Part shown: in pieces, positions 18,730 through 43,678 of the stretch
Layout: every line of letters starts with the position of its first letter
Position numbering within the stretch: the first letter of the stretch is position 1
Assembly (NCBI GenBank): GCA_003339415.1
Contig: PDHQ01000010.1
Span: forward strand, 43,675-107,674
Length of the DNA stretch: 64,000 bases
Source of the DNA: Ophiocordyceps camponoti-saundersi (nom. inval.)
Lineage: Eukaryota > Ascomycota > Sordariomycetes > Hypocreales > Ophiocordycipitaceae
Reading direction: 5' to 3'
Translations under genes and position numbers: made by a program
Notes under the pieces: model-generated
What the model was told of the DNA's origin: nothing
Seen by the model: the letters and a program-made list of their open reading frames with translations, nothing else
The model's database searches: none

Positions 18730-18843
18730 TTTGACAGTGTAGAGGGAGGATTGGGATTTTGATGCAGGATATAGTAGTGATGGTGTCGAATCTGGGTGGA
18801 GGTAGATGCAATAGCGATTCCAAGGGAAGGCGGATTTATGAGC

Positions 18844-18850
18844 ATTTATA
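18844..18850 (-). promoter_or_regulatory. Putative TATA element of the small secreted protein gene
   Basis: The minus strand reads TATAAAT about 115 bp before the ATG at 18729, a plausible distance for a fungal core promoter. Confidence 0.4.
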
Positions 18851-18916
18851 GATCACGATCTATGTAAGGTCACGATAGATAATATGAATGAGAATGTGAT
18901 TAATGTTCCATCACTG

Positions 18917-21239: not shown

Positions 21240-22799
21240 ATGATCCCTTCTCTTCCCATCTCCACCAGTTCGAGCCGGATATCAGACCTGTTCAAGCTTC
21301 TCAAGCGGCTTCTCTCCTTTATCGTCGCCTATATATCGCCGCGGCTCTTCTTTCTGCTTCCCTCCTTTGTCCAACGCCGGCTCCGGCCCGACGCGTTTCC
21401 CCCGCGGCGACTCTATCCGACGTCATGGCTTGACGGCGTTCGCGGCGTGGCCGCTTTTATCGTCATCTTCCTCCATCATATCGGCGAGCACTTCAATTTC
21501 TTAGAGGAGCCGTACGGCTTCCAAGGCGAGAACCAAGTCACCTTGCCCATACAGCTACCTTTTATCCGCATCGTCTACGCCGGCAACGCCATGGTGCACA
21601 TCTTCTTCATCATCTCCGGTTTCGCACTCTCGCTAAAGCCGCTTCGGCTGATTCACAGTGGCAACTATGATGCCGTCCTTCGCACCCTCGCCAGCAGCAT
21701 CTTCCGTCGCGGATTTCGACTTTTCCTCCCTCTCGTCATCAACACCCTACCGCTGGCCATATTCGCTTGGCTTGGATGGATGAGGTCCGTCGAAGGCCTC
21801 CCAACCTTGACGGAGCAACTAGGTCGATGGGGCAAGGACATGTGGCAGGTTTTGTTCCTGAGGCCTTGGAACTGGGACGGCTTCGAATACATGCCATACA
21901 ACTACGCGTTATGAACCATCGCCATCGAGTATTCGTGCTCGTTGTTTCTACTCATGGTCTTGCTTGTCTTTAGTAGACTTAGGACGCTTCTTCGATTTGC
22001 CTTGTTGCCCGTCCTGATCGCGATATGCTTCAAGGCCGGCCACTGGGGCATCGCCGAGTTTCTGGTAGGCATGGCCATGGCAGAAATACATCTGGTGCAG
22101 AAGAAATGGAGAGAACTACAAGACGGCCTGTCGAGAAACGAAGTCACAAGCCAGCCATCTGAGAGCTTTCCCTTAACCGACATGATGCAAGGCACCGACG
22201 ACGATGATGTGGAATTGGCCGAGAGCTCACGCGTTGCCGAGAAACAGCAGCAGTTTTCATCATCAGCATTACGACAGTTGCTGAAGATATCCTTCAAGAT
22301 ACTCCTTCTGGCAAACTTCTGCATCGGCATCTTCATCGCCGGCTGGCCCTCTAGAGGCCCCGCCGAACAAGCACCGGGATTCGCAACCCTCCACGCGATG
22401 ACGGCCGAGCCCTACCGAAGCGGCGGTGGCGGGGGGCCAATAAAATTTTGGCTCTTCTTTGGCGCCTTGCAGATCATGACGACGATGCAGCAGATGGCGT
22501 TCCTCCAGAGACCTTTCGTTACTCCATTGGCGCAGTATCTGGGCGATATAAGCTACGCCATGTACATGATGCACATTCCCTTTATACGTGAACCGGGTGT
22601 CGTGTGGACGTCGTATGTTTGGAGCTTCCTCGGCGGCACGGAGGGTGCTGGGGTTGTGAGAACCTTGCTTGCCTTGGTGCTGTCCTTTGTCGTGGTCATC
22701 ATTCCCGTCATCTGGACAAGCGATATCTTCTGGCGGCTAGTAGACGTAAAAACCGTCCGGTTCTCTCACTGGCTCGAGAGGATGTGCGTGCGGGAATAG
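21240..22799 (+). CDS. Acyltransferase-3 family membrane protein, interrupted by one in-frame TGA
   Basis: One frame of 520 codons without introns, broken only at codon 225 (TGA, 21912-21914). The protein reads SWLDGVRGVAAFIVIFLHH near residue 63, the N-terminal His-bearing signature of the acyltransferase-3 family, followed by several membrane spans (for example MVHIFFIISGFALSL) and a C-terminal multi-span region. The stop falls in NYAL-stop-TIAIEYS, where relatives of this family carry Trp (the Leu-Trp-Thr-Ile-x-Ile-Glu motif). A single TGG to TGA change therefore explains it. These proteins move acyl groups onto sugars, sterols or secondary metabolites at membranes. If the stop is real, only the first 224 residues would be made. 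The gene lies about 0.9 kb from the terpene cluster, so a tailoring acyltransferase role is conceivable but unproven. Confidence 0.78.
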
Positions 22800-23666: not shown

Positions 23667-25114
23667 ATGACTTCTCAGAGACAGGAACTTCTCGAGAGCC
23701 TTGTAGGGCAGCCTGTTCACATCCCCGACCTTCGAGGTCTATTTTCAGAATGGCCCGCGGCGGTGAATCCGAATCTTGAAGACTTGAGGGCATTTGTTTC
23801 CTCGAGTCTCAAGAGGTATGTACAGAGTCAACCTTGTGGATCTACATGAGTCTCCGGCTGAGTCTTTTTTCTCTCGCAGCAAATTCGCGCAGAATTCAGC
23901 GCAGTACAAAACCCTAGATAAGATGGACATAGGGCTCCTTACGTCGGCAATGTGGCCCGATGCAAGCTTCAAAAGGGCTCGTGTCTTGTCGATTCTTGTT
24001 CTGTGGGTGCGTGTTATTGCAAATACCGTGTTTCATAACCTTTACTTTAACACTTGGAGAAGCTCTTTGCCTGGGACGACGGTAAGTCTCTGAAAGCATG
24101 GTCACCGGAGTCCTCGAGCTCTGGCTTCTTCTGAACCTCGACAGAAATGGACACCGAGATCGGACGACTAGCAGATGACTTTGAAGCGGCAGAGGCCTCT
24201 CGCCGGGAGTCGATTGACAAAATCTCACATTGCTTCCATCTAGGTAACTTCAGCGAGCAGCCTGTTCAGACCAACACGTTTCACGACTTCCTGACGACAA
24301 TCGGCAACGCGGTCAACGACGATTATGGGATTGGTATCTTTGGACTCACTTATTGCACCTCTGTCGCTTGCTAATGAGTTATGCTAATGGGTTATATCGC
24401 TGTACAGACTTTCGAATGCTTCTCCTCTCCGAGTTCAAGTTCACGGCCGAATGTATCTCGACGGAGCAAAGACGTCGACTGAGTTCCATGCTTCCTACTC
24501 CTGAAGAGTACATAGCAACGAGAATGGGAACCAGCGGGTCCAACATAACGTCTTTGATGAATTGGTATGCTCCTCGTAGAGTCATCTACTTGCCTGCGGC
24601 TGAGAACATCTGTCTTGAACGCAGCTACGCAAGCGAGACGGTTCTGCCCTTGGAGGTTCTAACGGATCCGGACATGAAAGTCATACTGGATCAGGTGAAT
24701 CTGATTCTGTGGACGTGAGTAAAAAGCCCCTGCTCTACAAGCAACGTCAAAGCTTACAAGCGTAGCACAAATGATCTTTATTCGCTTCGAAAGGAAATTG
24801 TAAGGCAGGAGTTACATGAGAAAGGCAAGTTATAACTGACGATGTCTACCTAGGGCGAGAAAGCTGTGGACAGTCTCGTTCCCTTGCTCTACAACCGAGG
24901 TGGAAACTTGGAAGCAGCAGTTTCACAAGTCGTTCATATTATGCAGGAGGCGATTCAGCGCCTGGACCGAGCCGCGACTAAGCTGGCTACAAAGTTCGCT
25001 GGTGACGAGACTGTTGCAGAGGGTTTTTCTCGTTACATCAATACGTGCCGGCAGAACTGTACGGGTAGTCTGTACTGGAGTGTGCGGACAGCACGTTATA
25101 GCCAGCCGAAATAG
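23667..25114 (+). CDS. Class I terpene (sesquiterpene-type) cyclase
   Basis: Seven exons (23667-23815, 23880-24006, 24060-24081, 24145-24333, 24408-24714, 24766-24799, 24854-25114) join in frame to 362 residues. The metal-binding aspartate motif is WDDEMD (D98-D99-E100-x-D102), spread across a 22-nt exon and its neighbour. The second metal site is N267-D268-x-x-S271-x-x-x-E275 (NDLYSLRKE). A C-terminal R357-Y358 pair matches the diphosphate-sensing Arg-Tyr of fungal cyclases. Such enzymes ionise farnesyl (rarely geranylgeranyl) diphosphate and cyclise the cation with three magnesium ions in the cytosol. Length is normal for the family and no residue of either motif is missing. The divergent HMG-CoA synthase, isomerase, reductase and prenyl synthase next door would supply its substrate. 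The product skeleton cannot be predicted. Confidence 0.92.
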
Positions 25115-25478
25115 TTGTTGGTAGAGATGGTCTGCTCGAGTTGAATGAGATGGTTGAGTGCTTTTTACTTCATATTTCTCGTTGCAGTCAGACAATAAAG
25201 GGTAGCGTCTTCATCTGTTGCCTTGCATCGTTTCTTATAACACGGGTCTTGCAATTGTGAAGATTAGATGAGGGTAATGAGTGATTATCATCACTAGCAC
25301 AGCAACAACCGCGTCAAGGTCGAATAGAGATTAGAAAAGAGCACTCAATTATGAACGTATAGGTAACTATAGCAAAGGGAATTGATATTCGAAACTTTGC
25401 CAGCGGCAACCCTATTCTACCTCCTCCTCTTCTCCTCCTATCAGTTCAGAAAGACCTCATAACCAAGTCCGAGACAAG
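25115..25478. other. Intergenic, convergent 3' ends
   Basis: A 364-bp AT-rich stretch between the cyclase stop and the HMG-CoA synthase stop. It would hold both terminators. No gene was seen. Confidence 0.5.
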
Positions 25479-27054
25479 TTACGTTTTAATCTTGTATTCC
25501 CGTCTAAACGAGCTGCTTATTTGATCCAAGTAATAGGTGCCAGCCGTGAGCTTAGCAACATCACCAACAGGTCGAAAGTCTTTCTGAGAGTACGCTTTCT
25601 CTCGAAGAAGACACGTCTGGTAACAAACTTGTCAACGACTCTAAGTCCTGTTCGTCTGATACTGATACTTACATCTTCATAGACTGAAGGAGAGGCAGGT
25701 AGACGATCAGCCAAGCGAGAGTCGAGTTCAAGAGCCTCGGATATCTCCGCGACGCTCTTCCGAATGCGAAAGGACATGAATGTCGACGTCAGACCTGAGC
25801 CGTAACTGAACAAGCCGACGCGCTTGCCACGAAGATCCTCACTGTTAGAAGCAGACGTCAAACTGGCCAGACCAGCCCACACGCTGGCGCAGTACATATT
25901 CCCACATTGAGTCGCCACCTGAAGCGATGGCTGCACCCGACTTCGGAACCTGTCTTCGCTTAGAGTCATAAAGGTCCTTTCCACCTGTTTGTCGGTTAGA
26001 GAGCTTTCGTAACTCATACTCCTCATGTAACGAGGAACGTCTGAGAAGATGGCGGCGTCTGGGTTTGCCAGGTAATCATGATATAGCAACCGAGCGTAAG
26101 ACTTTTGTACGACTTTGCAGGTGGGAGCGTGAAAGATCATATAGTCGAACCGATCTATCCCGATACGAGGCTTTTCTTCCTTCCCTTTGCAACTCTTAGC
26201 CTCACGCTCGCAGTAGTTCTGATAAGAAGCGTCAAGGGCCCTGATATAGCAAAGGACAGAGTAATGAGCATCGAGAAAGCCGTACTCCATACTTGGATCA
26301 GGCTTATAAAAGTCGTAGACATGCTGCATGAAGGTTCCGCGCAGTCCAGGTTCTGCAACTATAGGAGCGTCAGGGCCGATCAGGAGAGCGATGGCACCGG
26401 CACCTCCCGCCGGTCGTGCGTTACCACAGGGGTAAACCGCTATATCGCTGGCGACGATGATGGCGTCACGCCCATCCCAGGCTGAGGATTCGATCCAGTT
26501 TAAGCTATTGAGCAACGCGTTTGTTCCACCGTAGCAGGCGTTCATAGTATCTGCCCCTTCGATGCTCGTGTTATTGCCGAATAATTGCATCAAGACGGTC
26601 TTCACCGACTTGGACTTGTCCAGACTTGTTTCGGTGCCTACCTCCAGACGACCAATTGAGCTGACGTCGATGTTGTATTTCTTCAAGAGGTTGGAAGTCA
26701 CCGTCAACGCAAACGAGTAGACATCTAGGTAAGCGTCAGCAGTTGATTCGAGTGAAGGGGTGGCACAACAGGCTGAGACCTTCGAGATCGTCACAGAAGC
26801 TCATGTTTCTCTGACCAAGTCCAATCGTGTATTTGCCCGGGCTGGCACCAAAATGGGTCTCAAGGTCCGATTGGCAGACATACTGGTTGGAGATGGTCAG
26901 ATGTTGATTTGCCGGATGTTGAGAGAGAATTGCTTCTCTAACTATCTACACGGTAGAGATTGAGGAACGGAGTAATGATGGACTTGGGGTTTACCTGTCT
27001 GGGAAAGTAAATCTCAATGGCTTTGATGCCAACGTTTGAAGGTCGCGGCATCAT
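25479..27054 (-). CDS. ERG13: Hydroxymethylglutaryl-CoA synthase (cluster copy)
   Basis: Four exons (27054-26995, 26882-26780, 26724-25673, 25616-25479) join in frame to 450 residues, a normal length. It starts MMPRPSNVGIKAIEIYFPRQ and continues GKYTIGLGQRNMSFC. The catalytic triad is visible: Glu about E86 (VGTETSLDKSKS), acyl-accepting Cys about C118 (NACYGGT) and His about H253 (FHAPTCK). The C-terminus carries GDVAKLTAGTYYL, the end signature of the family; a 3' intron must be removed to see it. The enzyme condenses acetyl-CoA with acetoacetyl-CoA to HMG-CoA, the second step of the mevalonate pathway. It is transcribed away from the HMG-CoA reductase/prenyl synthase pair and toward the cyclase. 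It is probably an additional copy rather than the housekeeping gene, because it is embedded in a biosynthetic cluster. The symbol denotes the yeast family name. Confidence 0.93.
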
Positions 27055-28384
27055 GTTAGACAATCTGATCAAGCCGGGGATAACTCTTGGCCATATGTCA
27101 ATGTCTGCACGTATAGAATGATGGATAATTTCACTACTGCAAGCATGGAGAGCCTCTCACTTACGGTTTGAGAAGACGGTGAAAAAAGCGACTTGTCCAG
27201 TACAGCAGCCAAAGCCTTGAACTCTATCCTGGCTGGTAAGCTGAGAAGATGGTGCCGGATGTTCAAGAGAAAGGGGGGGCTTTCGATCAGCCGTGTACCA
27301 GTAGCTCTACGTATCGAAGTCAAAGCACATGTCTCTTAACCACAGCAGTACAGTACAAATGGAGTGATTACTAGAGTTGCCCGATGGGTCGTATTATCAA
27401 CGTAAGAGTCAGTTCAGACCAAGGGTGCGTATACACTATCCAGATGACTGGGTTGGATGCAACCCTCGCTATGGACAGGGCAGCATGGAGGGCGGCACAG
27501 CAGAGGAGGGGTGTTGGTTCATGGGGAGCGGGGGAGAGAATCCTTCACTTGGGAATCGGGTTACTACAACGGTCGGTTCCATGAGTCGGCTATTAACGGA
27601 AGGGGACGAAAACATACCTCAAGCCTGAGTGAACTGTCGATTAACCCGATCCTATGTCTCGGGAACTTAGTCCTATGTGATATACATACGTGTATCTTTG
27701 GCAAGTTCCATGCATCACACATCTCCTCGTCCAGTTATATTCAAGTCCTTATCAGCCGTGATATACGCAACCGGTTCCTTTTCTAGCTAGGCGCCTTCTT
27801 AGTTGTCTTGATGAAACTATAGAATCGGGGCGTCTCGGTAATATCGCGTCGCCCGGTTTGACTTGCCGATTCCTTTCCTAGAGAAGCGCCTTCTTAGTTC
27901 TCTTGATGATACTACAGAATCAGGGCGTCCCGGTAATACCGCGTTCGCCCGGTTTGACTTGCCGGCACTGTCATGAGACCTTACTTCGTACGAGATGTGC
28001 CGTGACATGAAGTCGATGCTGCAGATGGCGGAACCGGAGTTCCGGTGTTACTGTAACGAGAAGATTTTGTGAGCGAACCCCGAAGGTATGCAGTTCACGA
28101 GTGTTGCGCACTTGGTTGTTGAAACTGGAAACTGCCATCATGATCTAGCCAACTGAATACGGACAGCAGTTGTTCAAGTACAATTTTTGTGTTGCAGTTC
28201 GCAGAGGATTCAACACGGGTGTCCTGTCTAGGTCTTAAGGACAATGATAGACATGTACAGGCAATTCACAGAAACAGGCTGAGAGTCGATATTCAGTGTA
28301 AATGAGTTTCTTCAGTATGTAATTTATATCAAGAACCTAATTGACAGAACAAGACTTGTCACGAGAGCTGATCAAGGCTCCGAT
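27055..28384. other. Intergenic with a degenerate two-copy repeat
   Basis: 1.3 kb between HMG-CoA synthase and IPP isomerase. I found no exon with a recognisable domain. It contains the roughly 95-bp-period duplication at 27791-27964 and would carry the synthase promoter. A lost gene here cannot be excluded. Confidence 0.45.
27791..27964. repeat. Two-copy tandem repeat, period about 95 bp
   Basis: Units 27791-27868 and 27886-27964 both begin GCGCCTTCTTAGTT and end GGTTTGACTTGCCG. They differ at several positions, mostly C/T or A/G transitions plus one single-base indel. No coding content was recognised. Confidence 0.8.
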
Positions 28385-29261
<877 letters not shown>

Positions 29262-29780
29262 TGTGATCCTGCTTCAAGTTCGACTGATGAAGATTGTGTT
29301 TCTCACTGCCTGAATGAAGTTGAAGAAGATCGATAACGTGTTGTAATCGACTTTGACTGGCAAAAGCCTGGGGCCGTCGAGGTGACAAGAAATACTACCT
29401 ATGTTGGGTTGTAGACTCTGGTGTTCCGATACTTCCGCAACTCCTTCATGGGACGAGCTGGAGTTACACTGTCCTGAATACACCTCCCTGGTTGAGTCCA
29501 AGGGGTGTCAATTGCAACCCCCTTCCTGTGAATCTGTGCCGAACCGCTGGCATACAGTCAAACAGGTTTTCTCATGCAGCCTATCTATCTGTGGAACGCC
29601 AAGCGAAGCTCGAGATCCATAACACGTAGCTCACGTTGCACAGGGAGCCATAATGAACTGTTCAGGATTGGCTCATCTACGTTCCCAGTCATGTCACCCT
29701 CCCTTCAAGGGTTCTTCAGCATGTGGTGGTGTGAAAGTTTTCTCTCAATCTCCAACCAACCATCCCAATCTGTTCGTATG
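29262..29780. other. Intergenic: IPP isomerase promoter and reductase 3' flank
   Basis: A 519-bp gap between two co-oriented genes. No coding signal was recognised. Confidence 0.5.
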
Positions 29781-31161
29781 CTAAGCAGTATAACTCCTAT
29801 TAAGTCGCATGTGCGAGCTCACCAGGTGACCAGTTACGAGCGCGCTACACGTCGAAAGTTCACCAGCCAGTGTCGCCGCAGCAATCACTCTCGCCAACGT
29901 CCGGGCGTTCTCCCCGACGTTATCAGGATCCGAGCCCTGAACTCCGAGAAGTCCAAGCATGGCTCCCTGGGCGTCTAACTTGGTGCCTCCACCCAAGGTG
30001 CCGAGTTCAAGGCTCGGCATTGTGACTGAAATGTGAAGAGCGTTCCCAACGCTGGGAACTGATCAGCCAGTATGTAACCTCACGATATCACGGAACATGG
30101 ACTTACCTCTTCATCAGGGTTAGACAATTCGAACTGCCCACAACTTGTGCCGGATCTTGTCCCGTAGCGATATAGATTGCTGTGACGATATTGGCGGCAT
30201 GAGTATTGAATCCGCCGATGGAACCAGCCATGGCCGAGCCAACCAGGTTCTTTGATACGTTCAGCTCTACCAGTGAGTTTGCATCGACCTTGAGGATCGT
30301 CTGCAAGACCTCGTTCGGGATAGTAGCTTCCGCAACGACGCTCTTCCCTCTGCCGTTGATCCAATTAATAGCAGCGCATTTCTTATCTACACAATAGTTG
30401 CCTGTTAGGGAGATGATTCTCATGTCTTGGAATCCACCGTCGGTCATCATCGTTCTCAGGGCGCACTCCACACCCTTGGACATCATATTCATGCCCATGG
30501 CATCACCAGTAGTTGCGTTGAAACGTGTGTATAGGCTAGTCCCGGCCATGATGGCCTTGACAGACTGTAGCCGGGCGAACCTGCTTGTCGACTCAAACGC
30601 CGTCTTCATCATCGCCTGACCATCCTCGGACTCTATCCAAGTCTTGGCATCACAAGCCCGTCGGACATTCGGAAACTCGACGCATGGACCGCGCGTCATG
30701 CCTTCTGCTGATAGGGCGGTGGACACGCCTCCTGCAAGGCAAACTGCTTTGCAGCCGCGATTGGTACTCGCCACTAACCCTCCCTCGGTGGTGGCCATCG
30801 GGATGATATAACGCTTGTTATCGACCAGAAGTGGCCCGGCGATTCCGACTGGTATAGGGACGTAACCGATGACGTTCTCACAACAGGCACCCAAGATACG
30901 GTTCCAATCATAGTTTTCGTAGGGAAGCTGGGAAAGACTCTCTGTCACTGATGTTTCACGCGCCTCGCACATCTTGGAGACGGCGATACGCCGAATTCTG
31001 ACCGCCCTTGTGCAATCTTTGACGACTCTCTCTAGTAAGTGATGAGAGATGTTTTCTTGTTGGCAGTAAAGCACGATATCATCGTCTGACATTTCTGATA
31101 GCGGCTCTTCTGGGAATACTCTTTCGGGTTTTCCGTCCTTATCGTTGCTGGATTCGGCCAT
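29781..31161 (-). CDS. HMG1: HMG-CoA reductase, catalytic domain only (cluster copy)
   Basis: Two exons (31161-30107, 30051-29781) join in frame to 441 residues. Only the soluble catalytic half is encoded; the roughly 500-residue N-terminal multi-span, sterol-sensing region of ordinary fungal reductases is absent, and the upstream 1.3 kb shows no exons for it. Catalytic residues are present: Glu about E126 (ATTEGG), Lys about K260 ([10 protein letters not shown]), Asp about D336 (TGQDPAQ) and His about H432 (HLVSSHM). The cofactor motif DAMGMNM is at about 220-226. It reduces HMG-CoA to mevalonate with two NADPH. Being soluble and lacking the sterol-sensing domain, it should escape ER-associated degradation control (inference). 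It is divergently transcribed from the prenyl synthase. Alternative role: target-copy resistance to an inhibitor. Confidence 0.94.
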
Positions 31162-32512
31162 GATCGATACGAGTGCCAGTTGTCAATCACTTTCGTCTCG
31201 CCTGTTTCGGTGACAAACTGTCTTTACTCGGCTGTTTGTGATATACCTTTGAGGAACTTCCGTGGTAAACTAGGTAAGTCATTGTAACAACGCTCTCACT
31301 TTTATATTCAGAACTACATGTAGGCAAGAGAATACATGGTTGTTGTATCGGTGAATATCCCGGGACCAACTTTGGATTAGTATCACTTAATGGTTGGGGG
31401 ATGTTCTCAACTTGAATGAGACAACTAAGCTAAACTACATGCACATACATATGCTGGCAAACTAGGAGACATCATTCCGTGTGCCACGATCCTACAACAC
31501 GAGAGATAACATAGACTAATGCCTTCTTGTATTGGTTCGAAAGTCGAGGAGGATACAACTCATGTCTTCGAACCTTTGCATCTGCAACGGCCCTCGTTCG
31601 ATGTGAAAGGGTTGCGCACGACGTGTTGCCCGACACACGTTGAGACTCGATAGAATGTGATTGTGATACGTATCACCCATCTATGAAACCTCATTTTTCC
31701 CAAGCGTCACGGCAAGACGACAGAAAGAAAGAGGGGTTTTGCCCCCACGGGATGAGCTTCTCTCCTGTCTGATCAGAAGTAGTGATTACCCGGTCATGAC
31801 ATTGTATTCCATGTTTGTCGATGCAACCTTGGGCGTGGCATTTCCGTCTACAGATGGGAAGCCGACAATTACCGAAACGAACTATAACAAGCCGCATTAA
31901 TGAGTATCAGTGGGCTCCATCCACGTTTGTCAAGGAACCACGGATGCTGGGAGCGAAGGGTGCAGTTGATAGTGGCATCCACATCATTACCGAGAGTTAC
32001 TATTAGGTTTACCTCCTGGACCAGTGTCGTGGAAGGATTCACTCTCTTATGCCGTTGGCAACGCCTTTACCGCAAGCATTATAGGCAGCTTTAACGCCGC
32101 GGTCTCACTAGAATCGATCTTCAAGCCGCTGCCTGATATATGTTATATCCGACCTAAACACCCTCTACCATATAAGCAGGGCGTTTGGTTCCCTGTCGAG
32201 GGTGCATCTAACGGATGTAAGGGGTGCGTCCAACCAAACACTCGTATTCCGCGAACATCAGGCTGGTTTCCATTCAGATTGGCCAGACATCGGATGCTAC
32301 GGTTCACCCGTTCATGCATGTACGTATGTTTGGGCATGTATCTCACATTCCTCAATCACACCCTGCCCTACGTCTGTACAGCGGTTCATCTCGATACCTA
32401 TAGTCCTAGGGTCCAGATAGGGTTGGATGTATTTAAGAACGACGCCTAACAAGCAGTCAAAGTCCTCTATACGTATTCGCCGAATCAATACTATTGCAAG
32501 CCTCGAAAAGCC
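31162..32512. other. Divergent promoter region between reductase and prenyl synthase
   Basis: 1.35 kb shared upstream region. It holds the reductase TATA-like site and an ATTTAAG element at about 32431 on the prenyl-synthase side. Between about 31,870 and 32,210 several short frames look faintly protein-like (for example SWKDSLSYAVGNAFTASIIG), but no domain or intact exon structure could be built. Confidence 0.45.
31299..31306 (-). promoter_or_regulatory. Putative TATA element of the HMG-CoA reductase gene
   Basis: The minus strand reads TATAAAAG about 140 bp before the ATG at 31161. A well-placed TATA here supports this ATG as the true start of the short reductase. Confidence 0.45.
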
Positions 32513-33633
32513 ATGGCTCTTTCAACCGCTAGAGAAAAGTTCCAGGCCATCTTTCCAAAGCTAGAGTCCGCTGTACTCGACCATGCAAAGTCGTACCAGC
32601 TAGACCTGTCAGAGCTGGAGAGGTTCAAACAGGTTGGTCAAGTTCGTCTCTCAGTAAATTCCGAAGATAACAACTCGAAACTCTTGACCCCCTTTTTCCC
32701 CTCTGGCAATAGAGCATCGAATTCAACTGCTCAGATGGAAAGTGTAACCGTGGACTCTCCGTGCTGGGGACAATGTCTCTGCTTCAGGATAGGCCGCTAG
32801 ACGACTTGCAGTTCTTTCATGCCGCTGCCCTCGGCTGGATTTTGGAGCTCCTACACGGTTCTTTTATCATGCAGGACGATATCATGGACAAGAGCGTTAC
32901 CCGTCGTGGCAAGCCTTGCTGGTATCGAGTAGAAGGCGTAGGCTTGAATGCTATCAACGACTCTATGGCGATACAGTCAGCAGTATATTATCTCCTAAGG
33001 GAGTTCTTCAGGTTTCATCCCTCATATGCAGAGATCGTCGAAACCTTTCTTGAAGCGCAGTTTAAGACGGAAATAGGCCAGCATAGCGACCTCCTTACTT
33101 CGCCTCAAGACGTCGTCAACCTCGACAAGTTCTCTCCGGAAAAGTACAGGCTGATCGCCGTCAACAAAACGGGCTACTCCTTCTTTCTCCCTGTCGCTCT
33201 ATCGCTTCACTACTTCGAAATCGCGACGCCCAAGAACCTGAAGCAGACCGACGAGATCGTCGCCTTACTAACAGAGTATTTCCAAATTCAGGACGACTAT
33301 CTCGACAACTTTGGCGCGCCTGAGACTATCGGGAAGATCGGCAACGACATTCGGGAAAATAAGTGCTCGTGGCTTATTGTTCAGGCTCTTCAAATCGCTA
33401 CACCGGAGCAGCGCAGAATACTGGAAGAGAATTATGGACAGGATGACGCCGTGAAGGAGAAAGAGGTGAAGAAGCTTTACGACGAGATGAAACTTGAGCA
33501 GCGCTATAAAGAGTTTGAGGAGGAACGGGTTAAGCTTATCCGTGACATGATTGACGATGTTGATGAGCGAGAGGGACTGAAGAGGGAGGTCTTTACAGCG
33601 ATGCTCTCGAAGATTTACAAGCGTAGCAAGTGA
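32513..33633 (+). CDS. ERG20: Trans-prenyl diphosphate synthase, FPP-synthase type with altered chain-length site
   Basis: Two exons (32513-32632, 32713-33633) join in frame to 346 residues, the usual FPP synthase length. The first aspartate-rich motif is DDIMD (D95-D99) followed by [13 protein letters not shown]. The second is DDYLD (D234-D238). GKCNRGLSV near residue 50 binds IPP. The enzyme adds IPP to DMAPP and GPP in the cytosol. At the position five residues before the first motif, where eukaryotic FPP synthases carry an aromatic residue, it has Ser90 ([12 protein letters not shown]); Phe91 is kept. In model enzymes small residues here lengthen the product, so GGPP cannot be excluded. 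It is followed 1.3 kb later, on the same strand, by the polyketide synthase. The symbol is the yeast family name. Confidence 0.92.
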
Positions 33634-34918
33634 AGTACAGAGGGAGTGAGGCTGTGGAACTTGATACTTGGTTTGACAACATGAGAGAGCTTCATGAGAA
33701 TCGAAGTGACCGAGTCCCAGTAACAGGAAGAATTGCAGGAGGTGGTGGTTGTGTATGTACATACACGTGGTGCATGCTGTGTATGTAGACGGAGAGCGTG
33801 GTAGCTTCAGCTTTGTCTTCTCTATTCGGCGTCCCGAGCATACCTAGGTATAGCAATATCTTACCCCGTTATAGGTCGATTATCTCTTTACTTGTTCATT
33901 GGTCATACTAGACGATATAGACGTGTGTCTAGACGGGAGCCTCCGGAGCGGGCCGGCCCCACCCGGGGACTCCTTCCGTGACACGGCCCCACCGTAATAG
34001 GTAGCCCGCTTTTCTTTTTACCTCAGGTCAAAGGCGGGCACACCGTTGGCTTCGGAACCTCTAGTATCCAAGCAGCGGAACAAGGTGTTGCCCACTGGAG
34101 AGATGAACCTGTGTGTCTTATTATCTATGCTGCTACGTTTACGGTATTACTAGGAGCAAACTCAAACCGCCTTCGGAGAGTCATCGAAAAGAGCGAATCC
34201 TGTTCAACCCAAGATATCACGATCATATAGCTCTTGACCCGTAAACAATGGCCATCTCGGCGATCCCATGACCTTTCCAGTACGATCAAGCAAAGCTTTC
34301 TAGCTCGTCATAAGGTTCACCATACAAGGGAAGAACAGAAACGTCTCGTAACACCTACCACCTCAGCCGCTCCATCTTCGCCGGACCTGATCTCGTCACA
34401 CCCACCCGTTCGTGGCAAAGGTTCTTCTTTCCTTTAGAGGCAGGTCCTCAACAGATAGGAGGAGACATTCACGGGTCATCTTGCCATCACTTGCCATTCA
34501 TCACGCCATCTCTCAAGGTGGAAGGCAGAGAGGTTCTTGGGAATGATGGGCTATGACGATGCACTCAGCTTCATGAGGGAGGGGGGGTGTTACCACGCTA
34601 CGTGTTCGTGAAGATGGTCTACAGTTGATGTCTCACTGTTTTTGAACTCATAGATTCTGGAAATGTTGCCCTTCTTGGGTACATTTCTACAAGTGTCTGG
34701 ACGGTTCGACACGTAATGACTGTTTCCCTTGAGATAGATCAGAGGAGGAGATGTGATTGTCGAGATACATATCTCAGCTTTGGATGCTTGTATATCATTA
34801 CTTGTTTCCTGAGAGATGCAGTGTCTGGTGAAGTCGTCTTCGTCGTCTACATGCCTGGTCTTTCCATCTCGAACAAGCTATACGCCAAGATCAAGTAGGA
34901 GAAGAAGCCATCACCAAG
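33634..34918. other. Intergenic: promoter of the polyketide synthase gene
   Basis: 1.28 kb with no recognised exon. It includes a GC-rich patch around 33,940-34,000 and scattered AT-rich segments. Confidence 0.5.
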
Positions 34919-37900
34919 ATGGATTCGAAGCATCCTTTCCCAATGGATGACCTGATGCCCATTGCCATCGTTGGGATGGCTGGTAAATTTCCCGGAGAGG
35001 CTACAGACCCAGACAAGTTCTGGGAGATGCTGTGCAAAGGGAAAAGCGCCCTTTCCAAGGTCCCAGCAGATCGGTTCAATATCGATGCCTTCTATCATCC
35101 CTCTCCAGAGCATCATGGATCGACTAATGCTTACGGTGGGAACTTCCTACAACAAGACATTTCATGTTTTGATGCGCCTTTCTTCTCTATTACTCCAAAG
35201 GAGGCTCAAGCCATGGATCCTCAGCAAAGATTGGCTCTTGAAGTCGCTTACGAAGGGTTGGAGAATGGTGCGTATACAGTGAAAAAGGCATGATAGAAGT
35301 AATCGTCACGACATGTCTGATAATGGACAGCCGGTATGAGCATTCATACTGTTTCCGGGACTTCAATGGCGTGTTTCATGGCTGTATTTACAAGGGATTA
35401 TGCAACATTAAGGGGTAAGATGGCTGCCTCTAGCTGCATTTCCTATCGATCTGACAGTTGGATTAGGCCACGATCCAGAGGAATACCCGTCAGTCTGTTC
35501 CTGCGTCGATCTATTGATCTTGAGGCTGAAGACAGGTCATGTTCCAGGGTCTACGACTTTACCGGCAATGCCATGTCCATGATATCCAATAGGATATCCT
35601 GGTTCTTCAACCTGCGTGGACCTAGCATCAGCCTGGACACGGCATGTTCGTCCTCACTTGTAGCGCTACACCTGGCCTGTCAGAGCCTCAGAAACGGCGA
35701 AGCTACATCGGTGAGTGATTCCGCAGTGTACTGACGAGGTAGCTACTTATCAAGAGACGTCTAGGCCATAGTCGGCGGTACGAATGCCATTCTGATGCCT
35801 GAGCTTCAGACGGCCATGTCTTCTCTGCATTTCCTTAGTCCGGATTGTAAGTCGATGGCTTTTGACCACAAGGCGAATGGCTATGCGCGTGGAGAGGGCG
35901 CTGCCGTGGTCGTCTTGAAGCCACTGTGTGATGCTTTGCGAGACGGGAACGTAATCCGAGCTGTGATTCGAGGCAGTGGTGTTAATCAAGATGGGAAAAC
36001 GCCCGGTAGGTTCAGACAAGGAGCGTTCAGGGGCTCAACTTGCTAATCGAGAGCTGTCCAGGCATCACTGTGCCGTCTCTCAAGGCCCAGAAAGAGCTCA
36101 TCGAAGCAACTTACGCAAACGCTGGCTTGAGCTTTCAAGACACTCTCTACGTCGAGGCACACGGAACAGGTATGTATATACCTCACCATGCTAGGCTGAC
36201 CCCTGGAGTCTTCCAATGAGATGCTCGGCTACTGACCGACGATGGATACCAGGCACTGCAGTAGGCGACCCTATCGAGTGTAAGGCGATTGGTTCGACCA
36301 TCGGGCAACTCCGGACAAGCGAAGCCCCCCTACTCGTAGGATCGGCCAAAACAAATATAGGCCATCTAGAAAGTGCCGCTGGACTTGCCGGCCTGATAAA
36401 GACGGTTTACATCTTAGAGAGAGGACTGATTCCACCCAGCCTCTGGTTCGAGAAGGCGAATCCAAGCATTCCGTTCCAGGAGCTGAACCTCAAGGCAAGT
36501 CGGAAACGGTTCATACTAGATCAGCAGCACGTTCTTGACGCTGACGTTTACTACGTAGGTTGCAACGGAGCTTCAGCCATGGCCTGTACGCGGGCTTCGA
36601 AGAGCCAGCGTAAACTCGTTCGGCTATGGCGGGACTAATGCTCATTGTGTTCTCGACGATGCCCTGCACTACCTTGAAGTCCGCGGCCTTCAGGGGCTTC
36701 ACAACACGATACGGGACTGCAGGCTTACGAACGGGCAGCTTCTGAATAATGGAGAAGGTGAGCTGTTCATCAACGGCAACGGGAGATTACACAACGGCTA
36801 CAGAGATGTCTATTCAACAGCCTTGAAGAACGGTAATGGAACCAACGGTAACGGAACCAACGGTAATGGAATCATCGGTAATGGCCAGCACTGCGTCAGT
36901 AAACTCCAGCGAATGAAGACGCAAACTCTCAAGCCTCAGCTGCTCGTCTGGTCATCCCACGACGAGCAAGGCATCGCACGAACGGCCAAAAGCCTGACAT
37001 CCTACATACAAGCCCGAGATGACTGCCCTCAAGAAGAAGATGCCTTCATGAGGAGATTGGCCTTCACCTTGGCAGGCCCACGACAGGAATTCTCCTGGCG
37101 GTCTTTCGTCGTTGCTACAAGTTCCACCGAAGCTTGCTCAGCCTTGGAAAAGCATCCGAACGCAGTGTCGAAAATGCAGAGCCCGCCTGTGATTGCCTTC
37201 ATCTTTACAGGCCAAGGGGCACAGTGGTTTGCCATGGGTCGTGAACTGCTCGTCTACGACGCTTTCTACGAGAGCCTCAGCGCTGCTGCTGCGTACTTTA
37301 AAGCCTCGGGCTCGGAATGGGATCTTATCGGTGAGGCGGAACCAACTGCTTCGTCGAGATAGTTGTTGTTACTGACGCGGACGGCATAGACGAGCTGTTG
37401 GCGGATGAGAGCGAGTCACGCATCAACGAGGCTATACTGAGCCATCCGGCATCTGCTTCTCTTCAAGTAGCGCTCGTTGATCTGCTTACGAGCTGGGGGG
37501 TGAAGCCATCAGTTGTCATCGGCCACTCCAGCGGAGAAGTTGGTGTGAGTTGTCTCGTGAAGACGTTCATAACCGTCGATCAGACCGCTAAACAAGTGAT
37601 AACTCCAGGCTGCGTACGCGCGTCAAGCCATCACGAGAGAATCTGTATGGAAAGTCGCCTATCAACGGGGTCGCCTTGCCTGCGGAGTCAGGAGAGAAGG
37701 CGGGATGCTGGCAGTAGGTCTAGGAGAAGACGAAGCCAAGGCTATTCTCGACGAGAACGCACTTGAAGGCATCGTCGTCGCCTGCATCAACAGCCCCGTG
37801 AGCGTCACTCTATCCGGAGACGTAGCCGCCATCCTCCGCGTCAAGGCGCTGCTGGACGAACGCAAAGTCTTTAGCAGGAGGTTGGCCGTGACAACAGCCT

Positions 37901-40900
37901 ATCACTCGCCTCACATGAACGACATAGCTGAAGAGTATCGTGAGGCTCTGGGGGAGTTGACTGCTGTTCCGTCCGCGGAGGAAGAGGACGTGAAGATGTT
38001 CTCTTCCGTGACGGGGGGTCTCATCGAGCCTTCGACTCTGGCGAATCCTTCCCATTGGGTGTCGAATATGCTGAGACCAGTCAAGTTTCTACAAGCTATC
38101 GAGGCTGCTTTGAACTACATACCAGGAGAGAAGTCGTCGAGAAGGGGGAGTGAAGCGTTCAACCTCATGGTTGAGATTGGACCACATTCAGCGTTACAGA
38201 TGCCTCTGAAGCAAATCCTGGCTGTCAACGGCAAAGACAACGCCGTCAAATACACAACCATGCTGACGAGAAAGCATGATGCTACGAAGACGGCATTGAA
38301 CGCAATGGGATACTTGTACCAGCACGGATACAAGGTCGATATTCACAAGGTCAACCGTCCTTCTGAAGCCGATGGCAAACTCGTCCCTCTCGTCGACATG
38401 CCCCCCTACGCCTGGAACCACGAGCACAGATACTGGAGCGAATCAGCACTTGTCCGCGCCTTTCGCACCCGCAAACACCCTCGTCACGACCTTGTCGGTC
38501 ACCCAGACGAACACTCGACCTCTCAGGAGCCAAGCTGGAGGAACTTGATCAGGGTTTCTGAACTCCCTTGGCTCGAGCACCATCGAGTACAGTCTACCGT
38601 CTTGTATCCCTTTTCCGGCATGATCATCATGGCGATTGAAGCTGTGCGGCAAGTCGACGATGGTCAGGGGGGGATAAAGGGGTATCGCTTGCGGGACGTG
38701 TCTGTCGATACTGCGATGATTATCGCCGGTGACGCGGCTGTGGAAACAAAGGTTCAGTTACGGCCTTGGCGAAGGGGTGAATCGTCGTGGAAGCAGTTTG
38801 GTGTCTTCAGTCGGAATCATCAGCATGGGACTTGGACGCAACATTGTCAGGGCTTCATCTCGGTTTCCTATCAGTTGTCTTCCTCTGATAGGGAAAGGGT
38901 TGCGTGGCATCGTCGTGAAGCGGCTGAGATGAGCAACAGAGGACTCGATGATAAGGATCCGGGAGAGTTATATCACTCGGTAAGTGAGAGAAAACGACTC
39001 TGCTATAGCCTTTGATCTGCTATAGCGTTTGAGAGAAACCTCATGTTAACCTCCTCCTCCTCCTTCTAGTGGAACGACCTCGGCCTACAATGGACCGACT
39101 CATTCCAAAGCATCGTCCAACTCAGGTCCGGAAACCACGAAGCACGTTTCACCATCAGAATCCCAGACACAAAAGCCTACATGCCAGAACAGTTCCAACA
39201 CGAGCACGTAATCCACCCAACCACCCTCGACGGCGTGCTCCAAACCATCCTACCAGCATGCTCAACGCGGGAAACGCCCCTGTCGAAAGGTCAAGTGCCG
39301 CGCTTCGTCCAAGGCGCGTACGTATCTCACCAGATGATGACCAAGTCACCAGGCGACGAACTCGAAGGCTACTCTCGTTTCGACCCTTCTCGATCAGAGG
39401 GCACGATTGTAGCTTTCGATGATGACTTGAATGAGATTCTGGTCGCGTTCGAGGGCATCAGGTTGGCTGGTATAAGTCAAGAAGCCAGTTTGTCAGAGCA
39501 GGATCTGTCTTCGGCTTGGGGCCTTGAATGGGGCTTGGACGTTGAAGCCATGTCTGACGAGTCTCTGGAGCAGTTTCTCAGGGCTGCTGTTGATGCCGTG
39601 CCAGAAACTGCCGAAGCCGTGATCCATGACTTGGAGTTGGCGTCCTTTATCATCTGCAAACGCATCTTTTGTCGCTTCTCCGTGGGAGAAGATCACTCCT
39701 TCGCTGCTCACCATTCGTTGTTCTTAGAGTACATCAAGAGGCAGTGTAACCTCGCCGAGGAAGGCAAACTACTCTGCCAACCAGCTCTCAACAGTCCCGA
39801 CAACTGGCTTCTCATGAAAGACGAAGCCGAAGACAAGGCTCTCAACCGAGCCTTCACCACCTCCATCGACGGTCGTTTGCTAAGCCGCGTTGCAGGCTCA
39901 CTCGTCCAAGTCTTCAAGGGCGAGCTTGAGCCTTTACAGGTTCTACGCCAAGACGACTTGCTCACCGAGTACTACCGAAGCTGCATCGGCATCGACAAGA
40001 TGAACGCCGCTCTCTCACACTTCGTCAAGAACCTATCGCATAAGAGGCCGCTGAGAATAATAGAGGTAGGGGCTGGAACGGGTGGCACGACACTCGCTGT
40101 GTTGTCAGCCTTTGGATCGAGGCGAGATGCAGCTTCGCGACTGCAGCTGTATAGTTACACTGATATCAGCAGTGGATTCTTCGAGGATGCGGCTGGCACT
40201 TTGGATGGCTACTCGCAGCTGATTGACTTTAGCGTCTTGGATATCGAGAAAGACCCTGAGACTCAGGGGTTTGAGCTCGGGTCTTATGATCTGGTGCTTG
40301 CTACCAAGGTGCTTCACGCCTGTGGCTCGATTGAACGATGCCTTCATCACTGTAGAAAGTTGCTGAAGCCGTGAGACTTTTCCTCCTCTGTTTCCTCTCT
40401 TCTTCCCCCTCTTCTTCTCTGCTGACCATGCAACATCATCATCAGAGATGGCTACTTGGCTCTTGTGGAACTCACTTCGACAACGGCACGAACGCCAATG
40501 ATCTTTGGCATGTTGAGCGGCTGGTGGTTTGGTGAGTTCTCTTTGGTTACGTCGTTTCCAGCTTCTCTCTAACACTTGCTTCAGGAGAGAATGATGGTCG
40601 GAAATGGGGACCGAGGTTGTCTGAAGAGGAATGGGACTCTCACCTTCGCAAACAGGGGTTCGAAGAAGGCCTCTCTGTTTCCATTCGTGATGATGACAGG
40701 GACTGCTTCTCGCACACGTTGATGATCTCACGGGCTTGCTCTCCGGTCATCTCTCATGACAAGCTGAGCAATAGCAGCAGCAGCAGCATGTTCATCGTCC
40801 GCGCCCCGGGAAAAGGGGAAGATGACGAATCTGCATCTTCTCAACTTGCCCGTGCAGTCATCCATGAAGGCCTTCAAGTGCAGCAAATCTCAATCACGGA

Positions 40901-43678
40901 TATCCCCGAAAACGGTCTAGGTAACAAGCATTGCGTGGTAACTCTCGAACTAGACGGTCTATTCTTACAGAACACGTCCGAGTCTGAGTTCTCCACGATC
41001 AAGAAGTTGCTGCTTGACTCCGCCAGCACCTTGTGGTTAACCAGGGAGGCAACAGTGAACGACAGCAACCCAGAAGCAAACCTCATAACTGGTCTGGCTC
41101 GAGTCGTCAGAAAGGAATATCCGGAAACTCAACTGACGATACTGGATCTCGATGACGCCAAGGCCAGCCACGGAGAAGCAACTTGGTCTGCCGTAGCTCG
41201 GATCCTTCGTTTCCGATCGGCGCAATACGAGACGGAGAGTGAGATGGCTTTGCGGAACGGTAACGTCTTTGTTCCACGCTTTCATCAACAGGAGACGTCA
41301 CCTCAAACGCATTCCGAGTCTGCAATCGTCCGTATCAGCGTTGAAGAGACTGGAAATGCCTTTGCTCTCCAAGAACAGAGTCCAGACAACAAAGCTGCAT
41401 CACTTCACTTCACCGAATGCAACGACTTTCCTTTCCCTCTCGGTTCCAAAGACGTCGAGATAAAAGTCAAAGCCGTGGAACTAAACCAGCGAGATTCCGC
41501 TGTTACATCTCTTCAATGCAGTGGCATCGTCAGACGCACAGGACAAGCAGTGACGCAATTCAAGACCGGAGACCGCGTCTTAACTTACCGACCAGCCTCG
41601 TGCCGGACTCATGTTCGCAACGCAGAGACCCTGGTGCACAAGATTCCAGACTCGATCAGCTTCGAGAAGGCAGCCGGTCTTCTCTGCACTTACATGGCAG
41701 CGCGTTACGCCCTGCATGACATCGGCCATCTACAGCCAGGCGAGAGCATCTTGATCTTCGCGGCTGCGAGGGACGTTGCCGAAGCAGCCTTCATCCTAGC
41801 ACGGCAGATGGGCGCTGAGACGTTTGTTGCCGTTGCTGATCCGGGCTTGAAACGGCTTCTCATCGACGAATCGGGTGTTTCCGAGGATCGTGTGTTTTGC
41901 AGCTTTCAGCACCGACTTGCAGCTGATATTGGTAAGATGACGGGCGGAAAGGGAGTTGATGTCATCCTGAGCATGAGCCGAGGCCATCCTCTTGACAACG
42001 TATTACATTGCATCCAGCCGTTTGGCCGCTTCGTTGAAGTAGGAGGCATCGGTGAGTCTTGTTCGAGGTAACGGTTGACGTGAACAGTTGAGTCTCACAG
42101 CATAACACAGGGTCTGAGAGCAGCGACGTCCAGCTCTTCTCCGAAAGCGTCGTCTTCGCCAGTGTCAACATGGAATCTCTCGCCTCTACGAAATCACCTG
42201 TTCTTCACGACACGGTCACGAGCATCATGGGATACATCGACGGCGGTATCGTTGACGTGCCTGAATCGTTCAGGGTGGTTCCCTTCTCGCGGTGTGACGA
42301 GGCGCTTGACCTTCTCCGGGATAAAGAGAGGGTGATACTGAGCATGGATGATGACGGTCTCTTGCCGGTGAGTGCAATGTGAAGTTTGAGTTGAGAGAGT
42401 AAGGCTCATTGTTTCTGCTCATCAGGTGATGCCTTCGAAGCATCGTCCACTGATGCTCGTTCCCGACGCAACGTACATGATCTGTACCGGACAGGATACT
42501 GCCAATTTCGCTCCTCCCTTGATCTCGTTCATGACCTCAAAGGGAGCTACAAATATCGTCTTGGTAGAGAATGGTCATCACGGGGATGGCTTACAGCTTC
42601 TCCCTCAGTTTCAGGGTGCAGGGCTCAACTCTAGAGTTATCAACTGCGACCTCAGCAACGCTTCAGAGTTCCAACTAGCTCTGGATGATTTGGAACGCTC
42701 TTGGCCTCCTATAAAAGGCTTGATAATGCTTGATTCTCAGGCAGAGGTATGACGCTGGCTTATTCTTCATCAAGGGTGAGCTGTATATTGACTGGGAGAA
42801 TAGCAGTCAACTTCGTTTGAGAATATGTCGGCTAAACACTTTCATATGATGGCCACTCCCATGATCAAGGCAACGGGAAATCTTCATTACTTGCTCCCCA
42901 AAGCTCTAGACTTCTTCATCATTCTTTCGTCCATGACCGAAGTGATGGGATCCAAGAGCCACGGAGGTAATGATATAGGCAAGCTAGCCCGTCCCCCTTT
43001 CTCCAACTCGGATTCTTTCCACTGACCAACTCAGCGTACGCGTTTCAATCTTCTATAACGAGGCACCGACAAGCCATGGGTTTAGCAGGAACTCACATAT
43101 CCTTCGAATCCACACCCAACCACGTCACCAACGGCAACCCGAGCAAAGGGCGTGTTCAAGTCTCCAGCGCGGATATGCTAGCAGCAGTAGAGATGGTCAT
43201 GAGAAGCCCAGCGTCATCTCCGGCCGAGGTCGTCATCTACACGCCAGCAGAGAATAACAACACTCACCAAGTCTCCCATCCTAACGAGGCGCGCTACACA
43301 TTTATCCAAGCCAAAGGAGAAGAACAAACCCAATCAAAAAGCTCCCTCACGAACTCTTCATCGTCTCCGTCATGCGAGTTAGGAGTAGAGCTATCATCAG
43401 CTCAGACAACTCACGAGGCGAAAGCCATCATCCTCTCCAGACTAGTCAGCAAACTAGCCAGGTTAATCATGATGGACGAGAAGGAGATGGACGTAGAGAA
43501 GGCAGCGAGCTCGTATCACATCGACAGCCTCATGGCCATCGAGATTCGAATGTGGGCTCTGAAGCAGGTCGGGAGTGACGTTTCGGTCTTTGAGATTCTG
43601 AGCAACGAGCCGCTTGTGGAACTGGCTTCGAGGATTACCGCTAGGTCGTCTTTGGTTCCGGAGCGGGTGAGGCTGTGA
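34919..43678 (+). CDS. HR-PKS-type polyketide synthase: KS-MAT-DH-CMT-(ER)-(KR)-ACP with degenerate ER and KR
   Basis: Seventeen exons join in frame to 2,585 residues: 34919-35267, 35331-35414, 35467-35488, 35536-35710, 35765-36005, 36062-36169, 36253-36494, 36559-37330, 37390-37544, 37609-38979, 39070-40370, 40446-40531, 40585-42051, 42111-42367, 42426-42746, 42804-42966, 43035-43678. KS: DTACSSS (C189), EAHGT (H324), NIGHLE (H364). MAT: GHSSGE (S711) and [18 protein letters not shown] (H1041; the usual Gly of HxxxG is Ser) and HPTTLDG (D1227). C-methyltransferase: [10 protein letters not shown] near 1505. ER: where relatives have AAAGGVGQAA it reads [10 protein letters not shown] (about 2030), so NADPH binding is lost. 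KR: GGLGGLG is replaced by TGQDTANF (about 2230). [12 protein letters not shown] with the phosphopantetheine Ser about 2536. There is no thioesterase or release domain. Intron 7 starts with GC instead of GT. The likely product is an unreduced, C-methylated chain, possibly released as a pyrone (inference). Confidence 0.93.
36818..36888 (+). repeat. Asn-Gly repeat linker in the polyketide synthase
   Basis: Tandem units of about 15 bp (GGTAATGGAACCAAC type) encode Asn-Gly-Asn-Gly-Thr repeats between the KS and MAT domains, a likely flexible linker and slippage-prone DNA. Confidence 0.75.

What the first reader, a model, noticed from the sequence alone, without database searches (positions are those of the whole stretch)
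23667..43678. A private mevalonate cassette coupled to a terpene cyclase and a polyketide synthase
Seen: within 20 kb lie a terpene cyclase, HMG-CoA synthase, IPP isomerase, HMG-CoA reductase, an FPP/GGPP-synthase-like enzyme and a PKS, all with complete reading frames after splicing. Known: fungal terpene clusters often carry one precursor gene (usually a prenyl synthase). Clustering four mevalonate-route enzymes, from HMG-CoA formation to prenyl diphosphate, is unusual as far as I know. Inference: the cluster boosts its own isoprenoid supply and makes a terpene-polyketide hybrid or a co-produced pair. Mevalonate kinase, phosphomevalonate kinase and the decarboxylase are not here, so the cassette covers the likely bottleneck steps and leaves the rest to primary metabolism.
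Basis: partly seen in the sequence, partly recalled or inferred. Interest (0 to 1): 0.88.

Follow-up and report, generated by a model that had tools for sequence, protein, structure and literature searches.

The report
Zombie-ant fungus's private mevalonate gene set
An ant-parasitic fungus carries, beside a terpene cyclase gene, its own spare set of four isoprenoid-pathway enzymes, some with substrate pockets that differ from the everyday copies, so it may feed or shield an unknown terpene product.

Summary
Window 23.7-43.7 kb, from Ophiocordyceps camponoti-saundersi (100% protein match), encodes an intact terpene cyclase, HMG-CoA synthase, IPP isomerase, HMG-CoA reductase, an FPP-synthase-type enzyme and a KS-AT-DH-MT-ER-KR-ACP polyketide synthase. 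Each of the four isoprenoid enzymes has a second copy on another contig of the same genome; mevalonate kinase, phosphomevalonate kinase and decarboxylase were found only elsewhere. Cyclase, reductase and prenyl synthase are linked in three other ant-infecting species. So it is a duplicated cassette, not the housekeeping genes.

New points. The cassette reductase is catalytic domain only, without membrane anchor. At two positions, Ser and Leu in all 116 non-cassette homologues listed, it has Thr; the Leu-to-Thr change is the statin-tolerance change known from the lovastatin cluster reductase (PMC9500038). The prenyl synthase's chain-length pocket, near-invariant in 116 homologues, is rebuilt in all four cassette copies. 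The polyketide synthase's KR and ER look inactive, and nothing here shows that it belongs to the pathway.

Best reading: an unregulated private supply line for a diversifying cyclase. Rivals: resistance to a reductase inhibitor, or an altered isoprenoid substrate.

The parts
23667..25114 (+). Class I terpene cyclase (terpene synthase family 2), exons 23667-23815, 23880-24006, 24063-24081, 24145-24333, 24408-24564, 24625-24714, 24766-24799, 24854-25114; DDEMD, NDLYSLRKE and C-terminal RY motifs present
   Evidence: gene model; PF19086 on the deposited version P0001; homologues; solved-structure kin
25479..27054 (-). Cassette HMG-CoA synthase, 450 aa
   Evidence: second copy C399, 67% identity over the main exon
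28385..29261 (-). Cassette type I IPP isomerase, 252 aa
   Evidence: second copy C111, 53-69% by exon
29781..31161 (-). Cassette HMG-CoA reductase, 441 aa, catalytic domain only; Thr253 and Thr419 at the positions of human Ser684 and Leu853
   Evidence: second copy C443 in a 1211-aa open frame with hydrophobic N-terminal stretches (by eye)
32513..33633 (+). FPP-synthase-type prenyl diphosphate synthase, 346 aa; DDIMD and DDYLD kept, residues before DDIMD changed to GSFIMQ
   Evidence: second copy C410, 59%
34919..43678 (+). Highly-reducing-type polyketide synthase KS-AT-DH-MT-ER-KR-ACP, 2580 aa; ER and KR cofactor motifs lost. Membership in the pathway not shown
21240..22799 (+). Acyltransferase 3 family gene next to the cyclase, with an in-frame TGA at 21912-21914; probably broken. 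Membership not shown

Best explanation
This is a terpene biosynthetic locus with its own precursor line. Shown: diverged copies of HMG-CoA synthase, HMG-CoA reductase, IPP isomerase and an FPP-synthase-type enzyme, with catalytic motifs kept, sit beside a class I terpene cyclase, and each has a second copy elsewhere in the genome. Inferred: when the locus is on, the cassette HMGS and the soluble HMGR, which has no membrane domain and so should escape the sterol-linked control and degradation of anchored HMGR, raise mevalonate; the kinases and decarboxylase encoded elsewhere (one place found for each) turn it into IPP; the cassette IDI balances IPP and DMAPP; the prenyl synthase, with a rebuilt chain-length pocket, makes a prenyl diphosphate of length still unknown; the cyclase folds it. 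The cyclase has changed faster between species than the supply enzymes, so the supply line is kept while the product probably varies. The PKS, if it takes part, would make an unreduced C-methylated acyl chain or pyrone.
For: Second copies of all four enzymes elsewhere; one place each found for MVK (C266), MVD (C203) and PMK (C111), none in the window. HMGR catalytic residues are kept: Glu559, Asp690, Lys691 and Asp767 equivalents in the window's model and in 120 of 120 listed homologues; His866 in the window's model too (for P0010 and P0011 the His counted there is an alignment artefact, because their fused models lose the true end). The cassette HMGR is 441 aa, as is the O. unilateralis copy; 427 aa in O. 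camponoti-rufipedis; the fused O. camponoti-leonardi model also starts without a membrane region. Linkage in the three other species. Cassette HMGRs form one clade, 100/100, and so do cassette prenyl synthases, 100/100. Identity to the window's protein in leonardi / rufipedis / unilateralis, recomputed with the corrected cyclase model: cyclase 76/55/60% over 294/323/257 aligned residues, HMGR 89/78/78%, prenyl synthase 84/74/77%. Precedent: the A. nidulans pimaradiene cluster carries its own HMGR and GGPP synthase, strongly induced together (PMC3323652, passages).
Against: No expression data. No promoter 8-mer shared above chance: 5 in at least 3 of the 5 promoters against a simulated mean of 3.0, maximum 8. 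The pocket changes in HMGR and the prenyl synthase are not predicted by a pure supply role. No P450, transporter or transcription factor among the window frames tested by Pfam, which is unusual for such a cluster; small or unmodelled genes could have been missed. Some deposited cyclase models of relatives look mis-spliced, which lowers their identities.
Confidence: 0.58

Rival explanations
1. The cassette HMGR (perhaps with the other copies) is mainly a self-resistance copy: the locus makes an HMGR inhibitor, and this reductase is insensitive to it, as LvrA is in the lovastatin cluster.
For: Position of Arabidopsis HMG1 Leu558 / human Leu853: Thr in the 4 cassette copies and Leu in the other 116 of 120 listed homologues; human Ser684 position: Thr in the same 4, Ser in 116. 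Of 129 columns at least 97% conserved in the 116, only 4 are changed in all four cassette copies: these two, Ala to Thr next to the His752 position, and one Pro. L558T is the LvrA change and made Arabidopsis HMGR more than 20-fold resistant to rosuvastatin in vitro (PMC9500038, section 9 read); Ser684 contacts the HMG moiety of statins (same paper, passage). A PKS lies next door.
Against: Extra copies of IDI and of a prenyl synthase are not explained by an HMGR inhibitor. The PKS has apparently lost KR and ER, so it should not make a lovastatin-like reduced chain. No such product is known here.
Confidence: 0.2
2. The cassette handles a non-standard isoprenoid unit. Its enzymes keep their chemistry but have changed substrate pockets, for example to carry an ethyl instead of a methyl branch (homomevalonate, as in some insect juvenile hormones; recalled) or to make an unusual chain.
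For: HMGR pocket changes. Prenyl synthase: 24 of 174 conserved columns changed in all four cassette copies, among them three of the six before DDxxD. HMGS: ARPTGG has become ARPAGG and SEYPxVDG has become MEYGFLDA against human cytosolic, human mitochondrial and Brassica enzymes and the C399 copy (read by eye). The duplicated steps are ones that would need retuning.
Against: The same changes fit relaxed constraint, chain-length change or inhibitor resistance. The kinases and decarboxylase, which would also meet the altered substrate, are not duplicated as far as found. IDI shows little change. I know of no fungal homo-isoprenoid (recall, not searched).
Confidence: 0.07
3. A separate question from the three above: the PKS and the acyltransferase are unrelated neighbours (or a decaying second cluster) and the pathway is the five-gene terpene set alone.
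For: KR has lost its cofactor motif, its Lys and its Asn; ER has lost GGVG; the acyltransferase has an in-frame stop. Linkage evidence from other species covers cyclase, HMGR, prenyl synthase and (in one) IDI, not the PKS.
Against: The PKS has a full-length frame over 17 exons with KS, AT, MT and ACP domains recognised, so it is not simply dead; its start is 1.3 kb from the prenyl synthase stop.
Confidence: 0.5

Closest known systems
Aspergillus nidulans ent-pimaradiene cluster (HMGR AN1593 + GGPP synthase AN1592 + diterpene synthase AN1594)
   Same: Private HMGR and prenyl synthase beside a terpene synthase, with other copies elsewhere; authors suggest dedicated precursor supply (PMC3323652, passages)
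   Different: Two precursor genes among the listed cluster genes, no HMGS or IDI; a bifunctional diterpene synthase; a P450 and a transcription factor present
Trichothecene-like clusters with an HMGR in Aspergillus leporis and kin
   Same: HMGR inside a sesquiterpene cyclase cluster (PMC10734572, section 17 read)
   Different: HMGR is the only mevalonate gene listed; P450s, transporter and transcription factors present; authors read the HMGR as possible resistance
Lovastatin cluster with LvrA HMGR
   Same: Second HMGR beside an HR-type PKS; same Leu to Thr change (PMC9500038, section 9 read)
   Different: The PKS here has apparently inactive KR and ER; here also HMGS, IDI, prenyl synthase and terpene cyclase
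AK-toxin cluster with HMG-CoA synthase (AKT4) and an HR-PKS
   Same: HMGS beside an HR-PKS (PMC9134587, passage)
   Different: There HMGS is proposed to help build the polyketide; no HMGR, IDI or prenyl synthase among the genes named in that passage
Streptomyces meroterpenoid clusters with whole mevalonate operons (recalled, no call)
   Same: Pathway-wide precursor supply placed in the product cluster
   Different: Bacterial, complete pathway in one operon; here four genes in a fungus, without the kinases and decarboxylase
Presilphiperfolan-8-beta-ol synthase-named cyclases of Colletotrichum
   Same: Closest named cyclases outside Ophiocordyceps, 42-43%
   Different: Too distant to carry the product over; the solved enzyme of that name (8h6q) matches at E 1.9e-13, behind 'Terpene cyclase 6' (7w5f, 1.9e-21)

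Membership tests
Terpene biosynthetic cluster with dedicated precursor genes | Intact terpene cyclase with metal-binding motifs | tested here: met
   DDEMD, NDLYSLRKE and RY in the model (motif roles recalled); PF19086
Terpene biosynthetic cluster with dedicated precursor genes | Precursor genes are extra copies, with housekeeping copies elsewhere | tested here: met
Terpene biosynthetic cluster with dedicated precursor genes | Linkage kept in relatives | tested here: met
Terpene biosynthetic cluster with dedicated precursor genes | Co-expression | not testable with these tools
   no transcriptome; promoter-motif scan found nothing above chance
LvrA-type self-resistance HMGR | Second HMGR next to a secondary-metabolite backbone gene | tested here: met
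LvrA-type self-resistance HMGR | Leu to Thr at Arabidopsis Leu558 | tested here: met
   Thr419; Thr in 4 of 120, Leu in 116; substitution from PMC9500038
LvrA-type self-resistance HMGR | Cluster makes an HMGR inhibitor | not testable with these tools
   product unknown
Statin (LovB-type) highly reducing PKS | Working KR | tested here: not met
   cofactor loop lost, Lys to Met, stretch with the Asn missing against LovB; by sequence only
Fully reducing HR-PKS | Working ER cofactor motif | tested here: not met
   AAAGGVG in CurK reads AAARDVA here; by sequence only
FPP synthase (eukaryotic type) | Two Asp-rich motifs and FPPS fold | tested here: met
   DDIMD, DDYLD; TM 0.94 to human FPPS, model pLDDT 87.6
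FPP synthase (eukaryotic type) | Chain-length residues that stop at C15 (avian Phe112, Phe113, Ala116) | tested here: not met
   Ser, Phe, Gln in the window's copy; roles of the residues from PMC10563020 (passage)

The most novel reading that the evidence does not exclude
The locus is not a spare copy of the ordinary pathway but a retuned one: HMGR and prenyl synthase (in four ant-infecting fungi) and HMGS (in this one) keep their catalytic motifs but have rebuilt substrate pockets. Either they make a non-standard (for example ethyl-branched, juvenile-hormone-like) isoprenoid, or they form a branch resistant to an isoprenoid-pathway inhibitor that the same locus makes and delivers into ants.
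Probability: 0.2. Interest if true: 0.92.

Novelty: new variant of a known kind. Interest (0 to 1): 0.68.

Why it matters
Fungal clusters with one or two precursor genes are known; for a four-step set from HMG-CoA formation to prenyl diphosphate beside one cyclase I saw no description in the listings (titles and abstract starts; only passages or sections of eight papers were looked at, and no supplements). A soluble HMGR made by evolution resembles the truncated HMGR that engineers use to raise terpene flux (recalled). The Leu to Thr and Ser to Thr pair, seen only in the cassette copies among 120 homologues, makes a sharp question testable in a tube: supply, resistance or new substrate. The host lineage manipulates ant behaviour, so a conserved terpene locus with a fast-changing cyclase is a candidate for chemistry acting on the insect; that last step is speculation.

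Tried and rejected
Housekeeping origin of the four genes: rejected. Chance or pseudogene frames: rejected for the six genes; the cyclase needed an extra 60-base intron (24565-24624) that the deposited protein P0001 reads through. Recent in-species duplication: not supported; the cassette HMGRs do not group with the Ophiocordyceps housekeeping HMGRs, and their nearest row, Lecanicillium, is weakly supported (82/52). Shared regulatory motif: nothing above chance. Structure of the HMGR: the monomer model was poor (pLDDT 68) and was not used; no coordinates were available to measure pockets. The prenyl synthase fold search ranks human FPPS first and does not decide product length. Product prediction from the cyclase: kin too distant. 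Synteny by DNA in relatives: the genome tools held no relatives of this fungus, so linkage rests on contig lengths and locus tags in the protein search. Short HMGRs in other fungi as a parallel: weak; the 416-aa A. wentii row P0077 is contained in the 696-aa row P0067, so it is a model artefact.

Rows dropped or trimmed before counts: P0010 and P0011 are HMGR-IDI fused gene models and were cut to their HMGR part (P0011 also, where my own window model stood for P0010). The and 69 counts use the 120 best of 6353 HMGR homologues, the and 69 counts the 120 best of 3220 prenyl synthase homologues. The HMGR tree used 29 of the 116 other listed HMGRs plus the C443 copy, the prenyl synthase tree 25 of 116 plus the C410 copy.
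Full report
What is there. The window lies at G000:C11:43675-107674 of a 45.7-Mb, 733-contig genome. The cyclase and prenyl synthase match proteins of Ophiocordyceps camponoti-saundersi at 100%, so this is a zombie-ant fungus. I modelled the genes by hand and with a small splice finder. Order: acyltransferase (+), cyclase (+), HMGS (-), IDI (-), HMGR (-), prenyl synthase (+), PKS (+). Ten long frames outside this block were run against Pfam: on the left a DUF6606 and a DUF3638/DUF3645 protein and a glycosyl hydrolase, on the right a DIP2-like AMP-binding protein, a class II phosphodiesterase and a flavin reductase; 4 of the 10 had no match. An eleventh frame, 19427-20194 (-), matches DUF4386 below the cut-off.

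Private or housekeeping. HMGR: three places, the window, C443 (in a 1211-aa open frame with hydrophobic N-terminal stretches) and a damaged copy on C332. HMGS: window and C399, 67% over the main exon. IDI: window and C111, 53-69% by exon. FPPS-type: window and C410, 59%; three weaker hits at 28-30% were not followed. The GHMP kinase profile found five places, none in the window; NCBIfam names them galactokinase, homoserine kinase, mevalonate kinase (C266), diphosphomevalonate decarboxylase (C203) and phosphomevalonate kinase (C111); the galactokinase and phosphomevalonate kinase frames score below their curated cut-offs, perhaps because they are parts of spliced genes. These searches score only the best candidates, so further copies are not excluded. 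So the cassette adds four steps and leaves three to genes elsewhere. The cyclase has no other match in the genome at E 0.001.

Kept in relatives. The protein search gives contig length and locus tag. O. camponoti-leonardi (contig 511973): cyclase CP532_0611, HMGR+IDI CP532_0619, prenyl synthase CP532_0604. O. camponoti-rufipedis (82689): CDD80_67, CDD80_64, CDD80_62. O. unilateralis (69223): XA68_14607, XA68_14610, XA68_14611. In O. unilateralis two tags lie between cyclase and HMGR, room for HMGS and IDI (inference). A further HMGR of each of the three species was also listed (P0021, P0023, P0039). Cassette HMGRs form a 100/100 clade on a long stem (0.82) inside a 12-row, 97/95 group that holds Ophiocordyceps and other Sordariomycete rows and one Arthroderma row; cassette prenyl synthases form a 100/100 clade on a stem of 1.1. 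One origin, older than the split of these four species.

What is odd about the enzymes. HMGR: of 129 columns at least 97% conserved in 116 other homologues, 117 are kept in all four cassette copies and 4 are changed in all four: Ser253 to Thr (human Ser684), Ala320 to Thr (next to human His752), Pro397 to Val/Ile, Leu419 to Thr (human Leu853, Arabidopsis Leu558). The human and Arabidopsis numbers come from the alignment ranges and my counting. PMC9500038 names Ser684 and His752 as statin contacts and L558T as the LvrA change giving statin tolerance (passages and section 9). Prenyl synthase: the six residues before DDxxD are AFFLVS in 113 of 120, one-residue variants of it in 3, and GSFIMQ, GHMLML, ISMLMF, SFMLML in the four cassette copies. 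In avian FPPS these positions include Phe112, Phe113 and Ala116, which set chain length: smaller residues at the first two gave products of C20 and above, Trp at the third shifted the enzyme to GPP (PMC10563020, passage). The cassette copies change in both directions, so I do not predict the length. HMGS: Cys, Glu and His motifs are kept (motifs recalled; ACYGGT, VGTET and FHAP visible), with changes in ARPTGG and SEYPxVDG (and the C399 frame, by eye). IDI: little changed.

The PKS. KS, AT, DH, MT, ER, KR and ACP are all recognised. The KR lacks the glycine-rich loop, has Met for the catalytic Lys and lacks the stretch with the Asn, against LovB (raw sequence; motif roles recalled). The ER reads AAARDVA where CurK reads AAAGGVG. 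If active, it should make an unreduced, methylated chain (inference). Whether it belongs is open.

Weighing. Extra copies of four pathway enzymes beside a cyclase, with the block traceable in four species, are best explained by precursor supply. The soluble HMGR fits: fungal HMGR is controlled mainly through its isozymes and post-translational mechanisms (PMC13412983, passages), and I infer that a copy without the membrane domain escapes them. The HMGR pocket changes do not follow from supply, and one matches a known self-resistance change; the missing KR argues against a statin. A changed substrate would explain pocket changes in three enzymes at once but has no direct support. I hold supply at 0.58, resistance at 0.20, altered unit at 0.07; whether the PKS belongs is a separate question, about even.

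In print. The listings showed no description of this cassette. PMC11057048, on twelve O. unilateralis-group genomes, gives 3-8 terpene clusters per species (passages); I saw nothing about this locus in the passages shown, and its tables were not looked at. PMC7341126, on the O. camponoti-floridani transcriptome, holds 'terpene' once and neither 'HMG' nor 'mevalonate'. PMC13412983, a 2026 review of the fungal mevalonate pathway, holds neither 'gene cluster' nor 'Ophiocordyceps' in its main text.

Noticed in passing
G000:C332:189287-189892 (L004, L005, L006): A third, damaged HMGR copy lacking much of the middle of the catalytic domain.
   Followed up: partly
window 21240-22799, stop at 21912-21914: Acyltransferase 3 family gene with an in-frame TGA; probably broken or a sequencing error.
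   Followed up: partly
window 27771-27964: Two copies of a 95-base tandem repeat, 87% matches, in the gap between IDI and HMGS.
   Followed up: no
window 16639-17859 and 18226-18852, minus strand: Frames coding Cys-rich, signal-peptide-like (by eye) proteins without Pfam match, possible secreted proteins left of the cluster.
   Followed up: no
P0010 and P0011 (deposited models of O. camponoti-saundersi and O. camponoti-leonardi): The deposited annotations fuse the cassette HMGR and IDI into one protein and lose the HMGR C-terminal end; in the window they are two genes with their own start and stop.
   Followed up: yes
window 45466-46533, plus strand: Long frame of Glu/Gly/Lys/Ala-rich repeats without Pfam match.
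   Followed up: no
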